DNA of 64,000 nucleotides from Acidaminococcus sp. (GTDB taxonomy: Bacteria; Bacillota; Negativicutes; Acidaminococcales; Acidaminococcaceae): contig JAKVOM010000001.1 of NCBI GenBank assembly GCA_022482815.1, forward strand, positions 2,066,946-2,130,945. Direction: 5' to 3'. Under the pieces are notes generated by a model. It saw only the letters and a list, made by a program, of their open reading frames with translations, was not told where the DNA came from and did not search any database. The translations under genes and the position numbers were made by a program. Below are positions 9,270-56,544 of this stretch, one piece after another. Positions within the stretch are counted from its first letter, which is position 1; each line of letters opens with the position of its first letter.

Positions 9270-12200
9270 GTGAGAAAGATTCGTTCGGTTTTGGTGGCTA
9301 ACCGAGGTGAAATAGCCATTCGTGTTTTTCGTGCCTGCAATGAATTAGGAATTCGTACGGTTGCAATCTATTCCAAGGAAGATTCTCTTTCTCTGCACCG
9401 TTTTCGAGCTGATGAGTCCTATCTCGTAGGAGAAGGCAAAAAGCCGGTTGACGCCTACCTTGATATCGATGATATCATCCGTATTGCCCATGAGCATCAT
9501 GTCGATGCCATCCATCCAGGCTACGGTTTCCTTTCAGAAAATGCTGAATTGGCTAAACGCTGCGAAGAAGAAGGCATTATCTTTATCGGCCCGAAGGTCG
9601 AACACCTGATTATGTTCGGTGATAAAGTGAATGCCCGCAAGCAGGCCAAGAAAGCAGGTATCCAGTATATTCCGGGTAGTGACGGTCCTGTCATGAACTA
9701 CGCCGAAGTAGAAAAATTTGCCCGGGATGTAGGTTTCCCGATTATGCTGAAAGCCGTTAATGGCGGCGGCGGCCGCGGTATGCGTATGGTTGACCGCATG
9801 GCCGATCTGCGCGACGCCTATGATCGTGCCAAGTCCGAAGCTAAACTCGCTTTCGGCAATGATGAAATCTATGTAGAAAAGTATATTCAGAATCCTAAGC
9901 ACGTAGAAGTGCAGGTCATGGGTGATGAATACGGTCATGTGGTTCATCTTTTTGAACGTGACTGTTCCATTCAGCGCCGCCATCAGAAAGTCGTTGAAAT
10001 TGCTCCGGCTTTCGCCCTGCCTGTGGAACTGCGTCAGAAAATCTGCGATGCCGCCATTAAACTCATGAGCAATGTGCACTACGTAAATGCCGGTACCGTT
10101 GAATTCCTGGTTACGCCGGACGGTCAGTTTTACTTCATTGAAGTTAACCCGCGTGTCCAGGTAGAACATACGGTCACCGAAATGATTACGGGCATCGATA
10201 TTGTCCAGACCCAAATCAAGGTGGCAGAAGGGTATGCCCTCGACAGTGAAGAAATCGGTATTCCTTCCCAGGAATCCATTCAGTGCCGCGGCAACGCTAT
10301 TCAGTGCCGTATTACGACCGAAGACCCGACGAATAACTTCATGCCTGATTCCGGTAAAATCATTGCTTACCGCAGCGGCGGCGGTTTTGGCGTACGTCTC
10401 GACAGCGGCAACGCTTTTACGGGCGCCATCATCACTCCGTACTATGATTCCCTCCTGGTTAAGGCGACCACGTATGGCCTGAGCCATGCCAAGGCTGTGC
10501 AGAAGATGCTGCGTGTACTCGGTGAATTCCGTATCCGCGGTGTCAAGACGAATATCGGTTTCTTAATTAATGTACTGAAGGAACCTTCCTTTGTAAAAGG
10601 TGACTATAACGTCAACTTCATCGATAACCATCCTGAGCTCTTCGATCTGCCGGTCGTTCATGACCGCGGGACGAAGCTCCTGAAATACATCGGTGATACG
10701 ACCGTTAACGGCTACAGCAATGCCGGGCATCAGGATGTGCCTGATTTTGTGCCTCTGGAAATGCCGGTGCCGGCGGAAGGTGACTTCCCGAAGGGCACGA
10801 AGCAGCTCTTTGACGAAATGGGTCCTGATAAGTTCTCCAAATGGATTCTCGACCAAAAGAAGGTACTGCTGACAGATACGACCATGCGTGATGCCCATCA
10901 GTCCCTTATGGCAACGCGTGTCCGCACCATTGATATGCTGCGCGTCCTGGAAACGGCTGCCAAGAAGCTGCCGCATTTCTTCTCCTATGAGTGCTGGGGC
11001 GGCGCTACCTTTGACGTGGCTTATCGTTTCCTCTATGAAGATCCGTGGGAACGGCTTCGTAAAATTTGTGAAAAGTCCCCGAATATCCTGCACCAGATGC
11101 TGATCCGCGGCGCTAACGCCGTCGGCTATACCAGCTATCCGGATAACGTAGTCAAGAACTTCGTGGAACTTTCTGCCAAAAACGGCGTCGATGTCTTCCG
11201 TATCTTTGACTCCCTGAACAGCCTTGACAATATGTATGAGACAATTCAGGACGTCCGTGAAACGGGCAAGATTGCCGAAGTGGCCCTGTGCTACACCGGG
11301 GATATCCTGGATCCGTCGCGGCCAAAGTACAACCTTGATTATTATGTCAAGATGGCAAAGGAACTGCAGCGTGCCGGTGCCAATATCATCGCAATCAAGG
11401 ATATGGCCGGTCTGCTCAAGCCGGAAGCCGCTTATCAGCTCGTTTCTGCTTTGAAGGATGCTGTAGATCTGCCGATTCATCTGCATACGCACGATGGGGC
11501 AGGCAACGCAGTGACGACGCTCTGCCGGGCTGCCGATGCCGGCGTTGATATCGTGGATGTAGCCTACGCTTCCTTCGCAGGCGGTACGAGCCAGCCCAGC
11601 ATGAACAGCTTCTATTACGCTATGAGCGGCAAGGATCGTCAGCCGGAAATGGATACAGACTCCATGGAAGAAATCACGCGTTACTGGGCTACGGTTCGTC
11701 CATACTACAAAGGCGTAGATAAGGCGGAACCGTATCCAAACACGGAAACTTATTACTGCGAAATGCCTGGCGGTCAGTTCTCCAATCTGCGTCAGCAGGC
11801 CAAGGCTTTAGGCCTGGGTGACCGTTGGAACGACATTAAGAAGATGTATCATGATGTCAACCTTATGTTCGGCGATATCGTAAAAGTGACGCCGTCCTCC
11901 AAGGTTGTCGGCGATATGACGCTCTTCATGGTGCAGAACGGACTGACGGAAAAGGATATTTACGAAAAGGGTGATACGATTGACTTCCCGAAGTCTGTCG
12001 TAGAATTCTTCGAAGGCCGTCTGGGCTTCCCGTACCAGGGCTTCCCTGAGAAACTCCAGAAGATTATTCTGAAGGGGAAGAAGCCGCTTACGCAGCGCCC
12101 GGGCAAGCTTCTTGATCCGGTGGATTTCGAATCTGTCCGCAGCAAACTTGCCAGCGCAGGCTACGGCAGCACGGATGAAGATATCAACGCATACTGCCAG

Positions 12201-51466: not shown

Positions 51467-52795
51467 TTGAAGATTGGTGTTGTCAGCCTTGGATGTCCGA
51501 AGAATCTGGTCGATTCCGAAGTGATGATGGGGCTTATCGAAGAAAGAAAATGGGAAATAACCAATGATCCGGCCGCTGCGGATATCATCATTGTGAATAC
51601 GTGCGGATTCATCGAGAGTGCCAAGACGGAATCTATCAATACGATTCTGCAGATGGCAGAATATAAAAAAGGCGATGCACATAAAAAGCTTATTATGACG
51701 GGATGCCTGGGACAGCGGTACGCCGATGAACTTTTTGAATCCCTGCCGGAAGTGGATGCCATTGTCGGCACGGAATGTTATGACCGAATCGGCGAGGTCA
51801 TTGACCGCGTTGAGAAGGGCGAGCGTTTTAAGATGATTCTGCCGGTAAAGGCATACTCCCAAAAAGCAAACCGTGTTCTTACTACGCCGAAATATACAGC
51901 TTATCTTAAAATCGCCGAAGGCTGCAGCAATTGCTGTACCTATTGCGCCATTCCTAAGATTCGGGGGCCTTATCGCAGCCGTCCCTATGAGGAAATTATA
52001 GCAGAAGCCCGTAAACTGGCGGATGCCGGCGTCAAGGAAATTATCCTGGTGGCGCAGGACACCACCCAGTATGGCATCGACCTATACGGGAAGTACCGTC
52101 TCGCGGAGCTTCTGCGTGATCTGAATAAGATTGAAAAATTGAAATGGATCCGCATTCTGTACTGCTATCCAGATTCTTTCACGGATGAACTCATTGAAAC
52201 CATCGCCACCTGTGAAAAGGTATGCCATTATGTGGATTTACCGCTGCAGCATGCCAGCAATTCGCTTCTCAAAACGATGCGGCGCCGTGATACGCGTGAA
52301 CAGGTGGAAACGCTGCTCGATAAACTGAGACGCCGAATTCCGGACATCTGTCTGCGGACAACCTTTATTGTCGGTTTCCCCGGCGAAACGGAAGAACAAT
52401 TCGAGGAACTGCTCGATTTCACTGAAAAGGAACGCTTCCAGTGCGCCGGTGTCTTTACCTATTCCAAGGAGGAAGGTACGGAAGCTGCGGAAATGCCAAA
52501 TCAAATCGATGAGGACGTCAAACAGGACCGTTATCACCGCCTGATGGCCCTCCAGGCCAAGATTTCAGAAGAAATCCAGCAAAGTCGTGAAGGCAGGACG
52601 CTGGAAGTCGTTGTGGAAGGCCACGATGAGGAAAATCCGGACCTTGCCGTAGGACGCTCCTATGCGGAAGCCCCCGACATCGACGGAAAGATCTTTATTG
52701 AAAACGGCAGGAACCTGAAGACCGGTTCCTTTGTGAAAGTAGAAATCCAACAGGGCTTTACGTACGAAGCGGTTGCTCAACTTGTGACGGAGTGA
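51467..52795 (+). CDS. rimO: Ribosomal protein S12 methylthiotransferase RimO
   Basis: Radical SAM enzyme that methylthiolates an aspartate of ribosomal protein S12. It has 442 residues: N-terminal UPF0004 domain with Cys10, Cys46 and Cys80, radical-SAM Cys153-x3-Cys157-x2-Cys160 (GCSNCCTYCAIP), and a C-terminal TRAM domain. It starts at TTG 51467 after gaaggga. Its last ~22 codons are duplicated at 55228-55294, just before cinA. Confidence 0.95.
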   Translation: MKIGVVSLGCPKNLVDSEVMMGLIEERKWEITNDPAAADIIIVNTCGFIESAKTESINTILQMAEYKKGDAHKKLIMTGCLGQRYADELFESLPEVDAIVGTECYDRIGEVIDRVEKGERFKMILPVKAYSQKANRVLTTPKYTAYLKIAEGCSNCCTYCAIPKIRGPYRSRPYEEIIAEARKLADAGVKEIILVAQDTTQYGIDLYGKYRLAELLRDLNKIEKLKWIRILYCYPDSFTDELIETIATCEKVCHYVDLPLQHASNSLLKTMRRRDTREQVETLLDKLRRRIPDICLRTTFIVGFPGETEEQFEELLDFTEKERFQCAGVFTYSKEEGTEAAEMPNQIDEDVKQDRYHRLMALQAKISEEIQQSREGRTLEVVVEGHDEENPDLAVGRSYAEAPDIDGKIFIENGRNLKTGSFVKVEIQQGFTYEAVAQLVTE

Positions 52796-52803
52796 TTCCT
52801 GAT
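52729..52803 (+). repeat. Direct repeat copy 1 (3' end of rimO)
   Basis: Nearly identical to 55228-55301: two substitutions and one one-base deletion across about 74 positions; weaker similarity reaches about 16 bases further upstream. Flanks a 2.4-kb segment. Confidence 0.9.
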
Positions 52804-52886
52804 AAAAGCGGAAATCTCCAGGCGTGGCTTAATCAAGCTGCGGCCGTACTCCGCTTTCTTTGCGGCTTTGTAAGGAGATTTTTTAT

Positions 52887-54269
52887 ATGACTGATATACA
52901 TTCCATAGTTCGTCTGCTCAAAAATCATCTGTATCCAACGTATCAGCTGCATGCAGTCATGGCAAACAAAAGAATAACGCCTGAGGATGGTCTCAAGCGT
53001 GGGGCCCTTACGGTTATCGACTGGGTCTGCCAGCGGCTGGGCGGGGACGTACCATCGTCTCTGCAAGTGCCGAAGCCGGAAGAGTATGCGAATTTTGACA
53101 GCAATCGCCTTGTATCAGTGCATTTGAACTATGGCTTTGTTATCGATATTGTTTCGCTGCCGGAAAAGGGAATCTGGAGTCTGCAGATTACGGAACCTGA
53201 CCTTGGCAGCGATCCGGGGAATCCGCATCAGGGGCGTCAGCCTGTGGCGGGCCGTATTTTTGAGACAGATGTGGCTTTTCTGGTGCAGGATAATGAACTG
53301 GAAATCGGCGTCAAGACTATCATTTCAGATCCGGTAGGGTCGGCTCTGGCGGATGTGTATCGGCCGGCTTTTGTTAAAAAACTATACAATGATCCGGAGT
53401 TCGGCCTGAAGCATCTGATCCCGATTGAGCCAAAGCTGCACATGGTGCAGAATCAGGCGCAGCTGAAAAGGGTACTGCATCTTTACCATCATCCGGAAAA
53501 CCAGCTGCCGCTGGTGCTATTCAGCAAAATCAGGAAAAATATCTCTGAGGAACGCCCGGCAATGCCAGGTCTTACGTTGAATCAATTGCAGACCGGAGGG
53601 GCTCTGCATAAGGATATTACACTTCCGGGCGGACATCTGTTAAAAAACAATGTGGGAAAGAAGCAAAATCCCATTTGGGCAAAAGAAAAAGCCGCCAAGG
53701 GACATCAGAAAGGAAAGCCCCGTGAATGGAACGGTGCAGCGATGGGAAGTTTACGGGAATTCAAAGTAAAAGGGCCTTCCGGTTCAGACCAGATCGATTC
53801 ATTACGGATTCTGAACGGCAATTCTTTTGCCGAAGCACTCAAACCAGTGGAACCGTCAAAACCCAGTACATCTTTTCAAACCGTTTTCCCACCGTACGAT
53901 GTGAAGCGGTTTGCTGCTTCTCTGGCAGGCTTTGCCCATGTATTCCTGTTGGAACCGGAACTGCTCGACACGTTGAATCAAGAGGAAAATCTGGAGCTTA
54001 GAACTGGGGACGTCCTCCTTCTGGAGCCTCAGTGTTTTCAAGGCGCAAAAAAGATATTCCCGCTGGCGCAGGCCAGGCAAAATACCAGGCTGTTATGGCA
54101 ATATCTATATACCTATCCGCGGGAAAAGGCATTCGACTTCGGCAATGTGTATTTTCTAAGCGGTGCCCAGGAGGCACTGGTACATAGCGGGCAGGAGGCA
54201 CAGAATTTTTCCCTCAGACAGGCGGAACGTTATGCTACGGAGCAGGAAGTCAAAGATGCACAGTGGTAG
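52887..54269 (+). CDS. Large protein of unknown function, N-terminal part, ended by an amber codon
   Basis: 460 residues to a TAG at 54267-54269. The same frame stays open beyond the TAG for 218 codons to 54926, with coding-like sequence, so the original protein was about 679 residues. Visible parts: residues 1-220 contain WSLQITEPDL and GRIFETDVAFLV; a Lys-rich linker (about 250-290); and a domain around 330-440 (FAHVFLLEPELLD, DVLLLEPQCF, DFGNVYFLSGAQEAL). No family recognised. ATG 52887 has aaggag nine bases upstream. It lies inside the segment bounded by rimO repeats. Confidence 0.7.
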   Translation: MTDIHSIVRLLKNHLYPTYQLHAVMANKRITPEDGLKRGALTVIDWVCQRLGGDVPSSLQVPKPEEYANFDSNRLVSVHLNYGFVIDIVSLPEKGIWSLQITEPDLGSDPGNPHQGRQPVAGRIFETDVAFLVQDNELEIGVKTIISDPVGSALADVYRPAFVKKLYNDPEFGLKHLIPIEPKLHMVQNQAQLKRVLHLYHHPENQLPLVLFSKIRKNISEERPAMPGLTLNQLQTGGALHKDITLPGGHLLKNNVGKKQNPIWAKEKAAKGHQKGKPREWNGAAMGSLREFKVKGPSGSDQIDSLRILNGNSFAEALKPVEPSKPSTSFQTVFPPYDVKRFAASLAGFAHVFLLEPELLDTLNQEENLELRTGDVLLLEPQCFQGAKKIFPLAQARQNTRLLWQYLYTYPREKAFDFGNVYFLSGAQEALVHSGQEAQNFSLRQAERYATEQEVKDAQW

Positions 54270-54926
54270 GAACGCCTGAAAGAAAAAGACCGGGCTTTAG
54301 CAATACTCGAAAGCAAGCTGCATAAACAGGAGCAGCAGCTGACCATAGCCGGAGAAAAAGCTATCGACGAGAGGCAGCAGTTACAGCAGAAAATCGAAAG
54401 GCAGGATAAGCTCCTCCGGGAGAATGAGGATTATATCCGATATCTGAAGGAACGAATTGCCCGTCCTCATACGAAAAAGGAAATATCCGGCTGGGCGGAG
54501 AGCCAGCTTTCTGATCATCTGGTGCTGCTGCCCAAGGCTTTATCGGCACTCGACGCTGCTTCTCTCAGCAGTGACAGACTGGAGGAAGTTTATGATTCGC
54601 TGGAGTTTCTGGCTCACGAATACTGGGAATCCCGCTATGCAGGGCTGACAGAAGAACAGCTGCTGCTGCGGTGCTCCTTGAAGTACAATAAGAAGTTTGA
54701 GATTACGCCAAACAGTGACAGCAGCATCAATACGTATCCGGGACAGTATAAAGTGTTCCATTACAAAGAGCCGGACGGAAACGAAGTCACGAAAGAACTG
54801 AAATATCATCTGAAATCCGGCAACAAAGCAGAACACCTGGTGCGGATTTACTTTTTCTTTGATGATGCCCGCCGGCTGATTGTGGTCGGCAGCCTGCCGG
54901 ATCATCTGGATACGGTACTGTATTAA
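54270..54926 (+). pseudogene. Downstream part of the amber-interrupted gene
   Basis: In frame with the preceding reading frame after the TAG. Residues just after the stop form a Glu/Gln/Lys-rich coiled coil (about 75 residues), then a C-terminal domain (EFLAHEYWESRYAGL, LVRIYFFFDDARRL, IVVGSLPDHLD). The pattern of a basic strand, IYFFFD and GSLP-HL ending is seen in C-terminal domains of various uncharacterised bacterial proteins. Independent translation could only begin at a GTG at 54522 with no good RBS. Most likely a nonsense mutation, CAG to TAG, in one gene of 52887-54926. Confidence 0.7.
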
Positions 54927-54946
54927 TTTTGAGTGAAAAGATCAGG

Positions 54947-54980
54947 AGGCACTTCTTTTAAGATACGTGCCTTCTTTTTA
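54947..54980 (+). terminator. Terminator after the interrupted gene
   Basis: AGGCAC (54947-54952) pairs with GTGCCT (54967-54972), followed by TTCTTTTT. Confidence 0.7.
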
Positions 54981-55227
54981 ACGATTTTATCCTTTGGCCG
55001 CTTACTGCTGATTTCCTGTGACAATTGCATCAGGGGGCAATCTGTGATAACATGATAAATTGCCACTGATATACGCAAATTGTTTTCTGCTCGGTATCGG
55101 CAAAAGTCGCTTTTACCAATGCCAGGCTGCAATTCCCCGAATTTTGTGGCTTCCCATTCGCATCAGAATGGGCCGGATATTGATGGTACCTTTTTATTGG
55201 ATACGAAAATGACCTGAATCCAGGGTT
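54981..55227. other. Noncoding or decayed stretch inside the inserted segment
   Basis: No convincing gene. On the minus strand an open frame of about 80 codons (from just above 55132 down to 54923; WEATKFGELQ, ISVAIYHVITDC) has protein-like composition but no RBS or standard start, and may be a remnant. No tRNA or complete insertion sequence. Confidence 0.4.
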
Positions 55228-55301
55228 CTTTGTGAAAGTAGAAATCCAACAGGGCTTTACGTACGAAGCGGTTGCCCAACTTGTGAAGGAGTGATCCTGA
55301 T
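55228..55301 (+). repeat. Direct repeat copy 2 (rimO tail before cinA)
   Basis: Repeats the rimO 3' end including its stop codon (TGA at 55292-55294) and carries the cinA RBS AAGGAG (55286-55291), five to nine bases before the cinA ATG. Encodes the same tail as RimO with one change (Thr to Lys before the last Glu). Confidence 0.9.
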
Positions 55302-56544
55302 GGATGTAGAAATCATTAATACGGGTACAGAGCTGCTTTTGGGAGACATTGTCAACACAAGTTTCCAGATTCTTGCCCGTACGCTCAATGATGCCGGTTA
55401 TAACGTACTGTATCAGACGACAATCGGGGATAACCCTGACCGTCTGCTGGAGTCCCTCAAAATAGCCCTTTCCCGTGCGGATATTGTTATTACAACAGGA
55501 GGTCTTGGGCCTACCCGCGGCGATATTACGACAGAAATTGTGGCTAAATTAGTGGGCAAACAGCTGGTGCTCGACACCTGGTGGTACGAAAAGTTAAAGA
55601 AAGACTTTGCACTGCGCGGCCGCGAGCTCACAGAGAACCACCGCAAGATGTGTCTCATCCCTGAAGGCGGGAAAGCACTCTATAATTCCGTGGGGACAGC
55701 CCCCGGTATTGCCGTAGAGACTCCGGAACATAAGCTCATTATCATGCTGCCCGGTCCTCCTGCTGAAACGAAAGCTGTCTTCATGGAACAGGTGATGCCC
55801 CTTCTGAGAAAAGCATATGCTTCTCAGGGCGTAATCCATTCCCGTGTGCTGCACCTCATTGGTGTAACCGAATCGTATGTGGCAGAACAGCTTGACGACG
55901 TGGTACAGGCACAGACTAACCCGACGGTCGCTATTTATGCCCGCAATGGGGAAATCATCGTCCGGCTTACGGCAAAGAGTGATACGCTGGAACATGCGGA
56001 AGCGATGCTTGCTGAAGAGGAAGCACTCATTCGCAGCCATGTCGGCGATTTTATTTACGGCGTTGACTATGAAAGCCTGGCTGAGACTCTGGGAAAAGCA
56101 CTGAAGGCCAGGAACCTTACCATTGCTTTTGCCGAATCTTGCACAGGTGGACTTGCTTCGAGCCTTATGACCGATATTCCGGGCAGTTCCGAGTATTTAC
56201 CCGGTTCCATTGTCTCTTACTGCGATCGTGTCAAGCATGAACAGCTTGGCGTCCCGTCAGATATTCTGGAAAAATATACGGCTGTCAGCAAAGAGACGTG
56301 TAAAGCCATGGCAGAAGGTGTACGTGCGCGCATTAAGGCGGATGTTGGCGTCAGCGTAACCGGTATTGCCGGTCCTGGCGGCGGCACACCGGAAAAACCG
56401 GTAGGCCTTGTCTATATTGGCTGCGCTACCAAACTTGGAACAGTAGTGCGGGAACTTCGTTTCAGGGCTTCCCGGACGACCATTAAAAAGAGAAGTGCCA
56501 TGCGTGCCATGGGCCTCGCACTGGAACAAGTTAAAAAATTATAA
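55300..56544 (+). CDS. cinA: CinA family nicotinamide-nucleotide amidohydrolase
   Basis: Two-domain enzyme of the NAD salvage pathway (NMN deamidase) linked to competence in some Firmicutes. It has 414 residues: N-terminal MoCF-like domain (GTELLLGDIVNTS, ITTGGLGPTRGDITTE, LPGPPAE) and C-terminal CinA domain with the catalytic FAESCTGGL and VTGIAGPGGGTPEKPVG. The ATG at 55300 has a perfect RBS donated by the rimO-tail repeat; longer starts are unlikely. Confidence 0.94.
   Translation: MDVEIINTGTELLLGDIVNTSFQILARTLNDAGYNVLYQTTIGDNPDRLLESLKIALSRADIVITTGGLGPTRGDITTEIVAKLVGKQLVLDTWWYEKLKKDFALRGRELTENHRKMCLIPEGGKALYNSVGTAPGIAVETPEHKLIIMLPGPPAETKAVFMEQVMPLLRKAYASQGVIHSRVLHLIGVTESYVAEQLDDVVQAQTNPTVAIYARNGEIIVRLTAKSDTLEHAEAMLAEEEALIRSHVGDFIYGVDYESLAETLGKALKARNLTIAFAESCTGGLASSLMTDIPGSSEYLPGSIVSYCDRVKHEQLGVPSDILEKYTAVSKETCKAMAEGVRARIKADVGVSVTGIAGPGGGTPEKPVGLVYIGCATKLGTVVRELRFRASRTTIKKRSAMRAMGLALEQVKKL

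What the first reader, a model, noticed from the sequence alone, without database searches (positions are those of the whole stretch)
52713..55301. rimO 3' end duplicated 2.5 kb downstream, bracketing an inserted module between rimO and cinA
The last ~75 bases of rimO (52729-52803) recur at 55228-55301 with two substitutions and a one-base deletion, and weaker similarity extends about 16 bases further upstream. The second copy supplies the cinA RBS (AAGGAG then TGA then ATG), so rimO and cinA were probably adjacent before 2.4 kb was inserted. Elements that restore the target gene's 3' end use exactly this layout. No integrase is visible, so the mechanism (site-specific, or recombination after capture from a relative's rimO) is open. 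rimO as a cargo site would be a useful, little-noted hotspot.
Basis: partly seen in the sequence, partly recalled or inferred. Interest (0 to 1): 0.8.

Follow-up and report, generated by a model that had tools for sequence, protein, structure and literature searches.

The report
Defence-like gene inserted between rimO and cinA
In one bacterium a stray, now-broken antiviral-type gene has been dropped between two neighbouring housekeeping genes, and the end of the first of them was copied in the process; this looks like an ordinary DNA-recombination accident rather than a new kind of mobile element.

Summary
The repeat is real: 52729-52795 recurs at 55228-55294 with 65 of 67 bases identical, then a one-base deletion. 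It is the only direct repeat of 45 nt or more found in the 64 kb. The insertion is real and derived: in 45 of 45 other family genomes with both genes close together on one contig, cinA begins 10-188 bases after the rimO match; here it is 2,507. The cargo is one gene, a relative of the candidate defence family HEC-07, interrupted by an in-frame amber codon. Its C-terminal domain models like RelE/ParE-type toxins, a lead only. The second copy is a mosaic: about 94 bases before it are diverged rimO-like sequence. With no recombinase found in the insert, this fits a single crossover or homology-assisted joining better than a site-specific element, but neither version explains every detail. Among 361 class genomes with a rimO tail only this one has a partial second copy, so no hotspot shows in the class. 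rimO as an integration site is already in print. The insertion reading holds; the element and hotspot readings are not supported.

The parts
51467..52795 (+). rimO (30S ribosomal protein S12 methylthiotransferase), intact
   Evidence: ORF; NCBIfam TIGR01125 526 bits, cut-off 357
52729..52795 (+). copy 1 of the repeat: last 67 bases of rimO including its stop
52796..52816 (+). rimO-cinA spacer and possible decayed cinA-start bases behind copy 1
   Evidence: anchored similarity (spacer included) to copy 2 and to the cinA start of 8 congeners; 0-25 of 300 shuffles reach the score, depending on the row
52887..54926 (+). HEC-07-like candidate defence gene, broken by an in-frame TAG at 54267-54269 (residue 461, inside a predicted long helix, probably a coiled coil)
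   Evidence: PADLOC HEC-07 E 8.4e-31; one stop inside an otherwise open frame; model
54459..54923 (+). part coding for the C-terminal domain that models like RelE/ParE-type toxins
   Evidence: model pLDDT 84.3; VIA-align 2 top Z 7.1; Foldseek E 0.2 or worse
54944..54980 (+). terminator-like hairpin with T run after the inserted gene
   Evidence: -14.2 kcal/mol, z -2.89, 2 of 200 shuffles fold as well; not listed by the pattern scan
55133..55227 (+). diverged, frameshifted rimO-like remnant in register with copy 2
55228..55294 (+). copy 2 of the repeat: native-type rimO end carrying AAGGAG, the cinA ribosome-binding site
55300..56544 (+). cinA, intact
   Evidence: ORF; NCBIfam NF001813 474 bits, cut-off 379

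Best explanation
A short DNA fragment carrying a HEC-07-like gene next to a rimO 3' end was captured at the rimO-cinA junction of one species, probably of the Acidaminococcaceae, by recombination at the rimO tail: most likely a single crossover of a circularised fragment, or else homologous joining at one end with illegitimate joining at the other. The event left a native-type junction on both sides of the insert. rimO stays whole in front; cinA keeps its ribosome-binding site, which is encoded in rimO's last codons, behind. The foreign-looking rimO stretch left of copy 2 marks the joint. The captured gene was broken by an amber codon that separates its C-terminal toxin-like domain from the rest. 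Shown: the insertion, the duplication, the mosaic second copy, the broken gene. Inferred: the foreign origin of the remnant, the crossover mechanism, and the order of events.
For: Ancestral adjacency in 45 of 45 other family genomes with both genes close together on one contig. HEC-07-like gene in 4 of 380 class genomes including this one, and in 0 of 8 congeners. Remnant is rimO-like (own 13, best 22, largest of 400 nulls 5). Its differences from own rimO fall mostly at third codon positions (22 of 32, against 21 of 62 elsewhere, Fisher p 0.002), the pattern of a diverged coding sequence rather than of a decaying fresh copy. It is nearest to a rimO of another genus (61.7%, own 54.3%; nearest row in genus g16 in 3,368 of 5,000 bootstraps and in the own genus in 739). 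Copy 1 continues into spacer and cinA-start-like bases. In E. coli, 56 of 60 selected recombinants from conjugation with a plasmid carrying a lacZ end gave the duplication PCR product, and 14 sequenced ones had 109-950 bp of that gene end duplicated, attributed by the authors to a single crossover of a circular molecule (PMC3240628, section 12 read).
Against: Neither version explains simply why the last 67 bases of both copies are native-like while the 94 before copy 2 are diverged; a later gene conversion or an already mosaic donor must be added. The remnant's placement is weak: 94 sites, best of 43 rows, 16 sites match only the nearest foreign rimO and 9 only the own one, and the unanchored similarity is marginal. 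True homology-facilitated illegitimate recombination usually gives deletions, not duplications (passages; 4 of 60 clones). No donor with a HEC-07-like gene beside rimO was found; in the closest relative it lies between secA and a regulator-like gene (gene names recalled). GC and GC3 of the inserted gene are in the range of its neighbours. A ComEC-type domain is present but is also found in 10 of 14 control genomes, E. coli among them, so it shows no competence. The cinA-start trace behind copy 1 is about 20 bases, spacer included.
Confidence: 0.55

Rival explanations
1. A site-specific element (or the trimmed remains of one) integrated at the rimO 3' end using an attP with a rimO tail; its integrase was lost or acts in trans.
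For: The layout (restored gene end in front, displaced end behind) and a 67-base core are as expected; rimO is a printed integration site for a 160-kb island in Acidithiobacillus (passages) and for an element in Polaromonas (passage); four tyrosine recombinases exist in this genome.
Against: No recombinase match in the inserted gene or in ten small ORFs of the insert; tail absent from the phage, plasmid and viral collections as searched, where needed an exact 44-base match and a short-query confirmation; rimO-like sequence lies upstream of the core in copy 2, where no gene restoration needs it; both copies extend into the spacer; among the other 360 class genomes with a rimO tail only G076 has a second match at E 1e-5, and there it belongs to a second long rimO gene.
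Confidence: 0.2
2. Native duplication of the rimO end with later decay: a tandem duplication of rimO-cinA DNA in which the inserted gene landed, and gene conversion kept the last 67 bases alike.
For: Both copies are native-like and both include the rimO-cinA spacer; own rimO still scores well above the shuffles against the remnant (13 against at most 5).
Against: The remnant's differences are concentrated at third codon positions, and its identity to own rimO (54.3%) is lower than that between own rimO and the g16 rimO over the same columns (62.1%).
Confidence: 0.2
3. Assembly artefact.
For: Only one genome of the species is held here.
Against: The genome is one contig, 99.99% complete; the two copies differ at three places; the inserted gene occurs in relatives of the same family.
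Confidence: 0.03

Closest known systems
Single-crossover products with duplicated gene ends, and homology-facilitated illegitimate recombination (E. coli lacZ experiments, PMC3240628; passages and section 12 read)
   Same: Incoming DNA bearing one gene end inserts and, in the 14 sequenced clones of the major class, leaves 109-950 bp of that gene end duplicated
   Different: There a conjugated plasmid cut in the cell was used; here the second copy is mosaic with a diverged rimO-like stretch, and the mechanism is inferred from one genome
Displaced gene 3' ends behind inserted modules in Vibrio cholerae type VI clusters (PMC5361080, passages read)
   Same: Module inserted beside a conserved gene, displaced 3' end left downstream, homology-facilitated illegitimate recombination proposed
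   Different: There the module replaces an effector; here a core gene is kept whole and one candidate defence gene is added
Mobile elements in rimO (Acidithiobacillus ferrooxidans, passages in PMC10322971; Polaromonas naphthalenivorans CJ2, passage in PMC4482086)
   Same: rimO is the target; the Acidithiobacillus island is listed with a direct repeat in rimO
   Different: The Acidithiobacillus ones are a 160-kb island and a partial ICE; here 2.4 kb, one gene, no recombinase found
HEC-07 (PADLOC candidate defence family; HEC = Hma-embedded candidate, passage in PMC12988326)
   Same: Inserted gene and its relatives match the HEC-07 models; the passage says several HECs, including HEC-06, have shown antiviral activity
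   Different: Window copy is broken; no paper with the term HEC-07 was found, and no antiviral test of HEC-07 was seen

Membership tests
Site-specific integrative element at a gene 3' end | integrase or recombinase within the element | tested here: not met
   inserted gene: Pfam, NCBIfam, PADLOC, PHROGs; ten small ORFs of the insert: Pfam; nearest PF00589 match in the genome about 37 kb away
Site-specific integrative element at a gene 3' end | direct repeat equal to the restored gene end at both borders | tested here: met
Site-specific integrative element at a gene 3' end | precise excision or excised circle | not testable with these tools
   needs DNA
Site-specific integrative element at a gene 3' end | same site occupied in relatives (usual, not strictly defining) | tested here: not met
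   45 of 45 other family genomes with both genes close together on one contig are empty; partial second rimO tail only in this genome among 361; one genome per species
Homology-facilitated or single-crossover insertion product | partial duplication of the homologous gene end around the insert (single crossover) | tested here: met
   compare PMC3240628 section 12
Homology-facilitated or single-crossover insertion product | deletion at the target with illegitimate junction (homology-facilitated illegitimate recombination proper) | tested here: not met
   rimO and cinA are both whole and a duplication is present
Homology-facilitated or single-crossover insertion product | donor sequence homologous to the target at one border | tested here: inconclusive
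   rimO-like remnant, nearest to another genus but weakly resolved
HEC-07 | profile match along the protein | tested here: met
   PDLC04161 8.4e-31; 9 of 9 aligned members match it at E 0.01 or better
HEC-07 | antiviral activity | not testable with these tools
   needs phage assays
RelE/ParE toxin superfamily (C-terminal domain) | fold | tested here: inconclusive
   top Z 7.1, rmsd 3.0, 83 residues aligned; 34 of the first 37 rows are titled as RelE/ParE/YoeB/YafQ/HigB-type or other toxin-antitoxin entries (grouping into one superfamily recalled), but Z is under 8 and Foldseek E is 0.2 or worse
RelE/ParE toxin superfamily (C-terminal domain) | sequence-profile match | tested here: not met
   no RelE/ParE-type Pfam match in 8 of 8 members at E up to 1

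The most novel reading that the evidence does not exclude
HEC-07-type proteins are one-protein defence devices: an N-terminal sensing part and coiled coil joined to a RelE/ParE-like toxin domain. They spread among Firmicutes of animal guts without an integrase by riding on short arms of core genes such as rimO, and the amber codon in this copy is a disarming mutation that cuts off the toxin domain.
Probability: 0.15. Interest if true: 0.6.

Novelty: new member of a known kind. Interest (0 to 1): 0.35.

Why it matters
It is a clean single-genome case of how a defence-type gene can be added next to a core gene with no mobile-element machinery in sight. It also suggests why the duplicated tail would be kept: the last codons of rimO are the likely ribosome-binding site of cinA, so an insertion that did not restore them would probably silence cinA (inference). 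The RelE-like reading of the HEC-07 C-terminus, if it holds, gives a candidate defence family a checkable effector.

Tried and rejected
Not favoured: a site-specific element as first choice (no recombinase found, no second site). rimO as a class hotspot (E 1e-5 would miss a very short or decayed second tail, 19 of 380 genomes had no match, and the second match of this genome is taken to be copy 2 because the place list was cut). Flanking gene-end repeats as a general property of HEC-07 genes: seven of eight loci were scanned (L052, a 3.3-kb record, left out; 5.7-9 kb of each). Four showed no repeat of 30 nt (L047, L048, L051, L053); L049 has repeats mostly in a repetitive ORF, L054 one of 41 nt at 71%, and L050 a 37-nt terminator-like repeat that starts at the end of its HEC-07-like gene and recurs 1.3 kb further on, not followed up. 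Rfam: one match at E 0.58, far under its gathering score. PHROGs: no match. Viral contigs for the gene: 5 stretches, none confirmed, with a single-sequence query. PMC10872708 was a false lead, the Rimov reservoir. The DNA search with the remnant over 380 genomes gave only short matches besides itself, one of them inside the rimO of G034. The remnant against own rimO without anchor is marginal (13 of 500 shuffles). Solved structures by sequence: mostly coiled-coil-type matches, best E 0.0068. The whole-protein model of HEC-07 is weak (pLDDT 70.6, pTM 0.44); Foldseek gave nothing at E 0.001; thioredoxin-like (Z 11.3, rmsd 2.8, 107 residues) and START-like (Z 7.8, rmsd 3.4, 119 residues) matches to its N-terminal parts were not followed up. 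Rows dropped before counts: in the remnant comparison 3 of 50 loci had no recognised tail (L029, L075, L077); four genomes appear twice among the 47 rows, and one search uses 43 rows without the repeats; three of 14 loci had no motif. One search counts gaps from the end of the rimO match to the start of the cinA match, the stop codon included; 11 of the 59 family genomes had no cinA match, G012 has the genes on different contigs, G075 only cinA.
Full report
Observation. The last 67 bases of rimO (52729-52795) recur at 55228-55294 with two mismatches, then a one-base deletion. It is the only direct repeat of 45 nt or more reported for the 64-kb window. A 120-base query finds only these two places in the genome; the next match has E 0.09.

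Ancestral state. rimO and cinA were sought in 59 genomes of the family. Both lie close together on one contig and strand in 46; in 45 of these cinA follows after 10-188 bases, and in the window's genome after 2,507, counted between the protein matches with the stop codon included. All 8 congeners are among the 45 (gap 10-18). Nine genomes have rimO but no cinA match, G012 has them on different contigs, G075 has only cinA, and G019 and G069 have neither at the thresholds used. The insertion is therefore derived and, at one genome per species, private.

Which copy is native. In 7 of 8 congeners rimO ends in AAGGAG before its stop, and in the other in GAGGAG; its place before cinA makes it the likely ribosome-binding site of cinA. 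Copy 2 has AAGGAG, copy 1 ACGGAG. Copy 2 is thus of the native type; copy 1 has lost a motif it no longer needs there. Behind copy 1 about 20 bases still resemble the spacer and the first codons of cinA (0 to 25 of 300 shuffles reach the score, depending on the row; the spacer counts in the score).

The remnant. Upstream of copy 2, about 94 bases continue the rimO register but are diverged and frameshifted. An alignment anchored at the copy gives 13 with own rimO and up to 22 with a relative of another genus; the largest of 400 shuffled scores is 5. Without the anchor the similarity to own rimO is marginal (13 of 500 shuffles). Differences from own rimO are 22 of 32 at third codon positions and 21 of 62 at the others (Fisher p 0.002). 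Identity is 61.7% to G033 (genus g16) and 54.3% to own rimO; the nearest row falls in g16 in 3,368 of 5,000 bootstraps and in the own genus in 739; 16 sites match only G033 and 9 only the own gene. This points to a foreign rimO end but does not prove it: the stretch is short and G033 was the best of 43 rows.

The cargo. The single long gene (52887-54926) matches PADLOC's HEC-07 (8.4e-31; 9 of 9 aligned members match), has no Pfam match at E 0.1 and carries one in-frame TAG at residue 461. Relatives without a stop exist. It is rare: 4 of 380 class genomes including this one, and 8 confirmed loci in the genome collection, two of which are the family members already seen. Neighbours of the relatives include, judged from the sequences by recall only, WYL-type regulators, a restriction-type helicase, a DUF262-like protein and dynamin-like GTPases. 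A terminator-like hairpin follows the gene. GC and GC3 of the gene lie in the range of its neighbours, as expected for a donor of similar composition or after amelioration. Ten small ORFs of the insert have no credible Pfam match (one at E 0.037, under its cut-off).

C-terminal domain. The motif of the last 150 residues suggested RelE/HigB-type toxins by eye, and this was noted before the search. The domain model (pLDDT 84.3) gives, in a second look at Foldseek's matches, toxin or toxin-antitoxin entries (RelE, ParE, YoeB, YafQ, HigB and the like) in 34 of the first 37 rows, the other three carrying other titles; top Z 7.1, rmsd 3.0, 83 residues aligned of an 84-residue chain. Z is below 8, Foldseek E-values are 0.2 or worse, and Pfam shows nothing of the kind in 8 of 8 members, so this is a lead. 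The amber codon lies in a predicted long helix (residues 424-524), ahead of this domain.

Mechanism. A site-specific element would explain the direct repeat, but no recombinase was found and its attP need not contain rimO upstream of the core. A single crossover of a circular molecule bearing a gene end gives a duplicated gene end around the insert (PMC3240628, section 12 read: duplication product in 56 of 60 clones, 109-950 bp in 14 sequenced); homology-facilitated illegitimate recombination proper was 4 of the 60 there and gave deletions, which are not seen here. Interchromatid integration during transformation also makes duplications, though of about 100-900 kb (PMC3784515, abstract and section 9 read). 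Displaced 3' ends after module insertion are described in Vibrio (PMC5361080, passages). A ComEC-type domain is encoded, as in 10 of 14 control genomes, so competence is not shown. The native-like tail in both copies beside the foreign-like stretch still needs either gene conversion or a mosaic donor; that is open.

Hotspot. A rimO-tail profile matched 361 of 380 class genomes; two matches are counted only in this genome and in G076, which has two rimO-cinA pairs. rimO as an integration site is already printed for Acidithiobacillus (passages) and Polaromonas (passage). Searches for further cases; beyond the papers named here only listings were seen.

Verdict. A real, private insertion of one broken candidate defence gene with a duplicated native-type junction; probably a recombination accident that selection for cinA's ribosome-binding site may have helped to preserve.

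Noticed in passing
window 54459-54923: C-terminal domain of the HEC-07-like protein models like RelE/ParE-type toxins; no such link was seen in the passages read.
   Followed up: partly
window 52935-54113: Model of the N-terminal part has START-like (residues 17-173, Z 7.8) and thioredoxin-like (181-409, Z 11.3) matches.
   Followed up: no
window 52793-55300: The last codons of rimO look like the cinA ribosome-binding site in 8 of 8 congeners (AAGGAG in 7, GAGGAG in 1), a likely translational coupling.
   Followed up: partly
L065-L068 (genus g16) rimO loci: The four g16 genomes have rimO but no cinA match.
   Followed up: no
L050:9832-9868 and 11158-11194: A 37-nt terminator-like sequence at the end of a HEC-07-like gene recurs 1.3 kb downstream at 89% identity.
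   Followed up: no
G076, contigs C177 and C1: Two rimO-cinA pairs in one assembly, more likely a strain mixture or contamination than a duplication.
   Followed up: no
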